This document shows, piece by piece, positions 28,114-28,238 of a DNA stretch of 64,000 bases. A program made the translations under genes and the position numbers. The notes beneath the pieces are model-generated. The model searched no databases, had not been told where the DNA came from, and saw only the letters and a list, made by a program, of their open reading frames with translations. Numbering within the stretch: position 1 is the first letter of the stretch; every line of letters starts with the position of its first letter. Source of the DNA: a virus; the IMG/VR virus record IMGVR_UViG_3300045741_000389, positions 1-64,000 of that record. One strand, written 5' to 3'.

Positions 28114-28238
28114 TCTGACGGGATCAAGTTGACGGTGAAACCCCTACCGACAGGGACCCTTGGCGGTCCGGGTTATGCGCCCGGCTCCAAGGATTGGACT
28201 CGAACCAACGATGCAGCACCGTCGTTCGCCACGTCAGA
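28114..28238 (-). ncRNA. Y-RNA-like element YR-F (tRNA-like, CAU hairpin on acceptor)
   Basis: 125-nt minus-strand RNA closed by UCUGACG/CGUCAGA. It carries the shared UGGCG (5') and CUUGAUCC (3') Ro-site signatures. GACGGUG pairs with CACCGUC to form the stem between the Ro site and the tRNA-like module. That module has a T arm (GUUGG-UUCGAGU-CCAAU), an acceptor-like stem (CCUUGG/CCAAGG) capped by CCGGG-CGCAUAA-CCCGG, which looks like an anticodon arm reading CAU with G at position 33, and a D arm with loop UGUCGGUA. It ends 21 bases before the Ro60 ATG. Confidence 0.75.

What the first reader, a model, noticed from the sequence alone, without database searches (positions are those of the whole stretch)
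28114..28238. YR-F has an anticodon-like CAU hairpin stacked on its acceptor stem
T arm and D arm are present in permuted order, but the acceptor-like stem is capped by CCGGG-CGCAUAA-CCCGG, nearly the tRNA-Met anticodon arm (G instead of U at position 33), placed where a tRNA has its CCA end. A third topology of tRNA mimic in one array suggests module shuffling.
Basis: partly seen in the sequence, partly recalled or inferred. Interest (0 to 1): 0.7.

Follow-up and report, generated by a model that had tools for sequence, protein, structure and literature searches.

The report
Hairpin-capped phage Y RNA, anticodon look-alike
A phage gene cluster makes small RNAs that bind its Ro60-like protein and imitate tRNA; one of them has its imitation acceptor stem lengthened by a hairpin that happens to look like a methionine anticodon arm, but the only known counterpart RNA has a hairpin there without that sequence, so the resemblance is probably chance.

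Summary
The hairpin is real. YR-F (window 28114-28238, MINUS strand) is the last of six Y RNAs upstream of a phage Ro60/TROVE gene (26656-28092). It has the Ro60 stem, then T arm, acceptor stem and D arm: the standard permuted order of bacterial Y RNAs (YrlA kind), not a new order. Unusual is the cap. Most of 117 comparable modules close the acceptor with 10 nt or fewer (median 4); YR-F carries CCGGG-CGCAUAA-CCCGG, pairing probability 0.99. It matches the initiator-tRNA anticodon arm at 14 of 17 positions. However, 3.3% of all 5-bp/7-nt hairpins in the window, and about 2% of random ones, match some tRNA anticodon arm as well; the invariant U33 is G. The only ortholog found (L010; Ro60 59% identical, syntenic) has a 28-nt hairpin cap at the same place whose loop is not CAU. 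The cap is best read as an extended acceptor stem, not an anticodon mimic or shuffled module. Family Y RNAs do carry anticodon-type arms, but at the tRNA-homologous place before the T arm (81 of 145 modules; U33 in 66 of 81), including YR-B here. That is more interesting than the finding itself.

The parts
26656..28092 (-). phage Ro60/Rsr-like protein gene (TROVE; weak VWA match), 478 aa
   Evidence: Pfam PF05731 over its cut-off; homologs in other phages and bacteria, 28-59% identical
28114..28238 (-). YR-F, Y RNA with hairpin-capped tRNA-like module (the finding)
   Evidence: fold; covariance model R1 19.6 bits, E 1.3e-5
28216..28238 (-). 5' strand of the Ro60-binding stem (GACGUGGCGAACGACGGUG)
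   Evidence: pairs with 28114-28137; outer part conserved in L010
28193..28209 (-). T arm GUUGG-UUCGAGU-CCAAU
   Evidence: R1 alignment; canonical T loop
28187..28192 (-). acceptor-like stem, strand following the T arm, CCUUGG
   Evidence: pair probability 0.99; compensatory changes against L010 (CGCCAG/CUGGUG)
28168..28184 (-). cap hairpin CCGGG-CGCAUAA-CCCGG (the 'CAU anticodon' look-alike)
   Evidence: pair probability 0.99; 14/17 to the initiator arm, chance about 2-3% per hairpin
28158..28163 (-). acceptor-like stem, strand preceding the D arm, CCAAGG
   Evidence: pair probability 0.99
28141..28155 (-). D arm CCCU-GUCGGUA-GGGG
   Evidence: R1 alignment
28114..28137 (-). 3' strand of the Ro60-binding stem with CUUGAUCCC
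   Evidence: GAUCC motif repeated in the six units of the array; outer part conserved in L010
28247..28377 (-). YR-E, Y RNA with standard permuted module (ARAGORN miscalls it tRNA-Trp)
   Evidence: R1 53.7 bits; YrlA RF02553 21.2 bits, below its cut-off
28387..28456 (-). YR-D, short Y RNA without tRNA module
   Evidence: fold and Ro60-type ends
28467..28590 (-). YR-C, Y RNA with a T arm but an atypical module
   Evidence: R1 matches the T arm only; fold
28600..28735 (-). YR-B, Y RNA with permuted tRNA module including a Thr(UGU)-like anticodon arm before the T arm
   Evidence: R1 55.7 bits; YrlA 35.2 bits, below its cut-off; CUUGUAA loop
28840..28908 (-). YR-A, short Y RNA without tRNA module
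   Evidence: fold and Ro60-type ends

Best explanation
YR-F is a phage-encoded Y RNA of the YrlA kind. Its ends form the stem that the phage Ro60 protein binds (inferred from conserved ends and gene order). The rest folds into a permuted tRNA mimic, T arm - acceptor stem - D arm (shown by fold and model match). In this RNA the usual short loop closing the acceptor stem is replaced by a second, GC-rich hairpin. That makes a longer, sealed acceptor helix with no CCA end, so it cannot be charged or trimmed like a tRNA (inferred). Most likely the module tethers or gates an RNase or another tRNA-binding partner for Ro60, as Y RNA does for PNPase in Deinococcus, and the longer cap only changes helix length and stability. 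The CAU loop is a coincidental or decayed resemblance and is not read as an anticodon.
For: Ro60 gene directly downstream on the same strand. Permuted module found by a covariance model built without the window or L010: 19.6 bits, E 1.3e-5 in the array, and E 0.014 over all 64 kb. Same order in Rfam YrlA. Ortholog in L010: same gene order around the array, Ro60 59% identical, shared GCUGCAUCG-UGGUUCGA, and in both RNAs the model sets aside 28 nt at the acceptor cap. The L010 cap folds as a hairpin with loop ACUGC, and the acceptor pairs change together (CCUUGG/CCAAGG against CGCCAG/CUGGUG). Stacked cap hairpins also occur in other Y RNA modules without anticodon loops (L157, L152, L103). U33 is lost, and the chance level is about 2-3% per hairpin.
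Against: Only one ortholog was found, so loss of CAU in L010 cannot be told from gain in YR-F. The unconstrained fold of the L010 RNA prefers a structure without the module (-51.7 against -41.1 kcal/mol), and its T stem has a U-U mismatch. The match to the initiator arm includes the three G-C pairs typical of initiator tRNA. Ro60 and RNase binding were not tested.
Confidence: 0.78

Rival explanations
1. The cap is a relic of a tRNA-Met anticodon arm that was moved to the acceptor end by recombination (module shuffling) and has decayed since (U33 to G). It has no decoding-related role now.
For: 14/17 match to the initiator arm, two of the three differences being one compensated pair; anticodon-type arms, five of them CAU, occur elsewhere in the family.
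Against: The L010 cap at the same place has no trace of it; no similar cap among 117 modules and none found by DNA pattern in viral contigs; chance alone gives such a match in about 2-3% of hairpins.
Confidence: 0.12
2. The cap is a working mimic of the initiator anticodon arm: a decoy or bait for a host anticodon nuclease (for example a VapC toxin that cuts initiator tRNA) or another CAU-binding enzyme, presented on a Ro60 particle.
For: VapC enzymes cut the initiator anticodon stem loop between A38 and C39 (PMC4105405), and the sequence around that bond (CAUAACCC) is kept; competitive inhibition of an anticodon nuclease by a Y RNA was proposed for Salmonella YrlA (PMC7790460).
Against: U33 replaced by G; not kept in the ortholog; the Salmonella proposal is untested; the phage's host is unknown.
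Confidence: 0.05
3. The RNA folds differently in the cell and the CAU hairpin or the tRNA-like module does not form.
For: Whole-RNA z-score only -1.82; T stem probability 0.27-0.54; L010 prefers another fold.
Against: Hairpin and acceptor pairs at 0.99, 12 kcal/mol lost without the hairpin; canonical T loop; model match.
Confidence: 0.05

Closest known systems
YrlA, bacterial Y RNA with tRNA-like domain (Rfam RF02553; Chen et al. 2014; structure PDB 6CU1, cited in PMC8394870)
   Same: Ro60 stem plus T arm, acceptor stem closed at its outer end, D arm, in this order; gene next to Ro60/Rsr
   Different: YR-F is not matched by the Rfam model even at E 10, and has a stacked hairpin instead of a short loop on the acceptor stem
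YR-F ortholog in IMG/VR contig IMGVR_UViG_3300045747_000668 (L010:4865-4986)
   Same: position before Ro60, conserved ends, T arm, D arm, oversized hairpin cap
   Different: cap sequence and loop (ACUGC) differ; no CAU
Bacterial initiator tRNA anticodon arm
   Same: 14 of 17 positions, GGG/CCC stem, CAUAA
   Different: G at position 33, closing C-G pair, located on the acceptor stem of a Y RNA

Membership tests
Bacterial/phage Y RNA (YrlA kind) | encoded next to a Ro60/Rsr gene | tested here: met
   TROVE gene 26656-28092, same strand, 21 nt downstream
Bacterial/phage Y RNA (YrlA kind) | long stem of 5' and 3' ends with conserved Ro60-binding bases | tested here: met
   fold; repeated end motifs in six units; ends conserved in L010. 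Binding itself not tested
Bacterial/phage Y RNA (YrlA kind) | tRNA-like module T arm - acceptor - D arm | tested here: met
   R1 19.6 bits, E 1.3e-5; much weaker than YR-B (55.7) and YR-E (53.7)
Bacterial/phage Y RNA (YrlA kind) | score over the Rfam RF02553 gathering cut-off | tested here: not met
   no unit of the array reaches 69 bits; best 35.2 (YR-B); YR-F not listed. This lowers the label YrlA in the strict sense, not Y RNA
Bacterial/phage Y RNA (YrlA kind) | binds Ro60 and an RNase such as PNPase; tRNA-type modifications | not testable with these tools
   needs biochemistry
tRNA anticodon arm (CAU) | 5-bp stem, 7-nt loop, CAU at 34-36 | tested here: met
   sequence and fold
tRNA anticodon arm (CAU) | U33 (U-turn) | tested here: not met
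   G at position 33 (sequence)
tRNA anticodon arm (CAU) | conserved in orthologs | tested here: not met
   L010 cap has loop ACUGC; only one ortholog available

The most novel reading that the evidence does not exclude
YR-F presents an initiator-tRNA anticodon arm on the outer end of a Y RNA acceptor stem, as a decoy for host nucleases that cut initiator tRNA: a phage RNA counter-defence carried by Ro60.
Probability: 0.04. Interest if true: 0.75.

Novelty: new member of a known kind. Interest (0 to 1): 0.25.

Why it matters
It shows how far the cap of the Y RNA acceptor stem can vary while the T arm, D arm and Ro60 stem stay, and it warns against reading anticodons from loop sequence alone. 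The comparison made for it brought out a better question: more than half of the Y RNA modules examined have an anticodon-type arm at the tRNA-homologous place, which bears on whether Y RNAs act as baits for anticodon enzymes.

Tried and rejected
Plus-strand reading: Ro60 and the array are on the minus strand, so the plus-strand fold is irrelevant. Real tRNA gene: ARAGORN's tRNA-Trp is the middle of YR-E, and YR-F is not called. DNA pattern for a T arm followed by GGGCNCATAACCC in viral contigs: nothing; the hairpin pattern in the fetched loci: only the window's own copy. T-arm pattern search for more orthologs: 41 stretches, of which L168 is the L010 contig again; the other 40 were not inspected one by one. 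A scan of sequence upstream of Ro60 for the conserved anchor with the T arm directly adjoining it found that arrangement, with the GCUGCAUC anchor, only in the window and L010. A first null test used an uncleaned tRNA library and gave 5.7%; it was replaced by the cleaned one. MAFFT appears to misalign the acceptor/D-loop part of the two orthologs by 2 nt, so no covariance model was built from the pair. Three attempts to read papers on Y RNA tRNA mimicry failed because they are not held.

Full report
What is there. The window is part of a 68.8-kb virus record. A TROVE/Ro60 gene lies at 26656-28092 on the minus strand (Pfam PF05731 over its cut-off). Directly upstream, on the same strand, are six Y RNA units, A to F, and one long hairpin (coordinates and folds). 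YR-F, 28238 down to 28114, is the unit next to the Ro60 start. Its RNA folds with a Ro60-type end stem, T arm, acceptor stem CCUUGG/CCAAGG, hairpin CCGGG-CGCAUAA-CCCGG on top of it, and D arm. The hairpin and acceptor pairs have probability 0.99, and forbidding the hairpin costs about 12 kcal/mol. The T stem is less certain (0.27-0.54).

The order of parts is known. Rfam's YrlA model finds the same T arm - acceptor - D arm order in YR-B (35.2 bits) and YR-E (21.2 bits), both below its cut-off of 69. I collected loci with relatives of the Ro60 protein from phages and bacteria (and more). I built a covariance model from 60 of their modules, leaving out the window and L010. The modules were chosen by pairing, so the pair counts are not independent evidence. 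The match of the left-out YR-F is independent: 19.6 bits, E 1.3e-5 within the array, E 0.014 over the whole window. A review describes Y RNA as resembling the D, T and acceptor arms of tRNA and as tethering Rsr to PNPase (PMC8394870). Y RNAs have been identified by bioinformatics in many bacteria and in mycobacteriophages (Chen et al. 2014, as cited in PMC12282133; the paper itself was not held).

The cap. In 117 modules from 90 loci, 101 caps are 10 nt or shorter (median 4) and 11 are 15 nt or longer; a few of the long ones look spurious. Stacked hairpins in the cap occur in a few others (L157, L152, L103), none with an anticodon-like 7-nt loop. So a hairpin cap is rare but not unique.

Is it an anticodon arm? 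The hairpin matches the initiator arm at 14 of 17 positions. Against a cleaned library of 318 anticodon arms, 7 of 212 perfect 5-bp/7-nt hairpins in the window reach 14 or better, as do 1.6-2.3% of random hairpins. Given several hairpins in the array and a choice made after seeing the sequence, this is weak. The initiator sequence itself was added to the library from my own knowledge. U33 is G.

The ortholog. L010 has the nearest Ro60 (59%) and the same order of neighbours: the 29000 ORF, array, Ro60, the 25729 and 23973 ORFs, DNA polymerase. Its last unit shares GACGUGGCG, GCUGCAUCG-UGGUUCGA, GGUAGGG and AUCCCGUC with YR-F. The model finds it with 14.1 bits, E 3.2e-4, again with 28 nt set aside at the cap. 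Acceptor pairs are changed on both sides (CGCCAG/CUGGUG). Its cap folds as a CCCC/GGGG stem with an inner GCC-ACUGC-GGC hairpin: a hairpin, no CAU. Caution: left free, this RNA prefers another fold, and it is the only ortholog.

Control inside the family. Testing only for a 4- or 5-pair stem at the tRNA-homologous place, 3-6 nt before the T stem, 81 of 145 modules have it. Without any condition on the loop, base 33 is U in 66 of 81 and base 37 is A or G in 73; anticodons vary (GUU 15, UGU 8, GCU 6, CAU 5 among those with U33). So anticodon-type arms exist in Y RNAs, at the natural place. YR-F and L010 lack such an arm there, and their cap does not follow the anticodon rules. I found no description of these arms in the papers available, but the key ones were not held.

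Mechanism. Shown: fold, module, gene order, variable cap. Inferred: Ro60 binds the end stem; the module engages an RNase or another tRNA-binding partner; the cap seals and lengthens the acceptor helix. The decoy idea rests on known VapC cleavage of initiator tRNA (PMC4105405) and on a proposal for YrlA (PMC7790460); I give it about 5%.

Verdict. A real, well-folded hairpin in a member of a known RNA family; the anticodon and shuffling readings are not supported.

Noticed in passing
window 28600-28735 (-); L008, L004, L026, L161 and others: Many Ro60-adjacent Y RNAs (81 of 145 modules) have an anticodon-type arm between the conserved UUACUUC and the T arm, base 33 being U in 66 of 81, with varied anticodons including CAU in five. 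The review read here lists only D, T and acceptor arms (PMC8394870).
   Followed up: partly
window 28733-28836 (-); L010:4611-4704: A long stable hairpin (-51.4 and -65.3 kcal/mol) lies at the same place between units A and B in both phages with different sequence; no Ro60 motif seen.
   Followed up: no
L008:3364-3431; window 28309-28374: Y RNA modules are called tRNAs: tRNA-Thr annotated in Xanthomonas phage 10KY502B and ARAGORN's tRNA-Trp here.
   Followed up: partly
window 10644-15479 (-): Cluster that looks like DNA hypermodification genes: thymidylate synthase-like, 5-hmdU DNA kinase, FAD oxidoreductase, amino acid:DNA transferase.
   Followed up: no
L003:4838-4903, L017:3808-3886: Some long caps begin with ACCA or GCCA directly after the acceptor strand, as if they kept the CCA end of an ancestral tRNA.
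   Followed up: no
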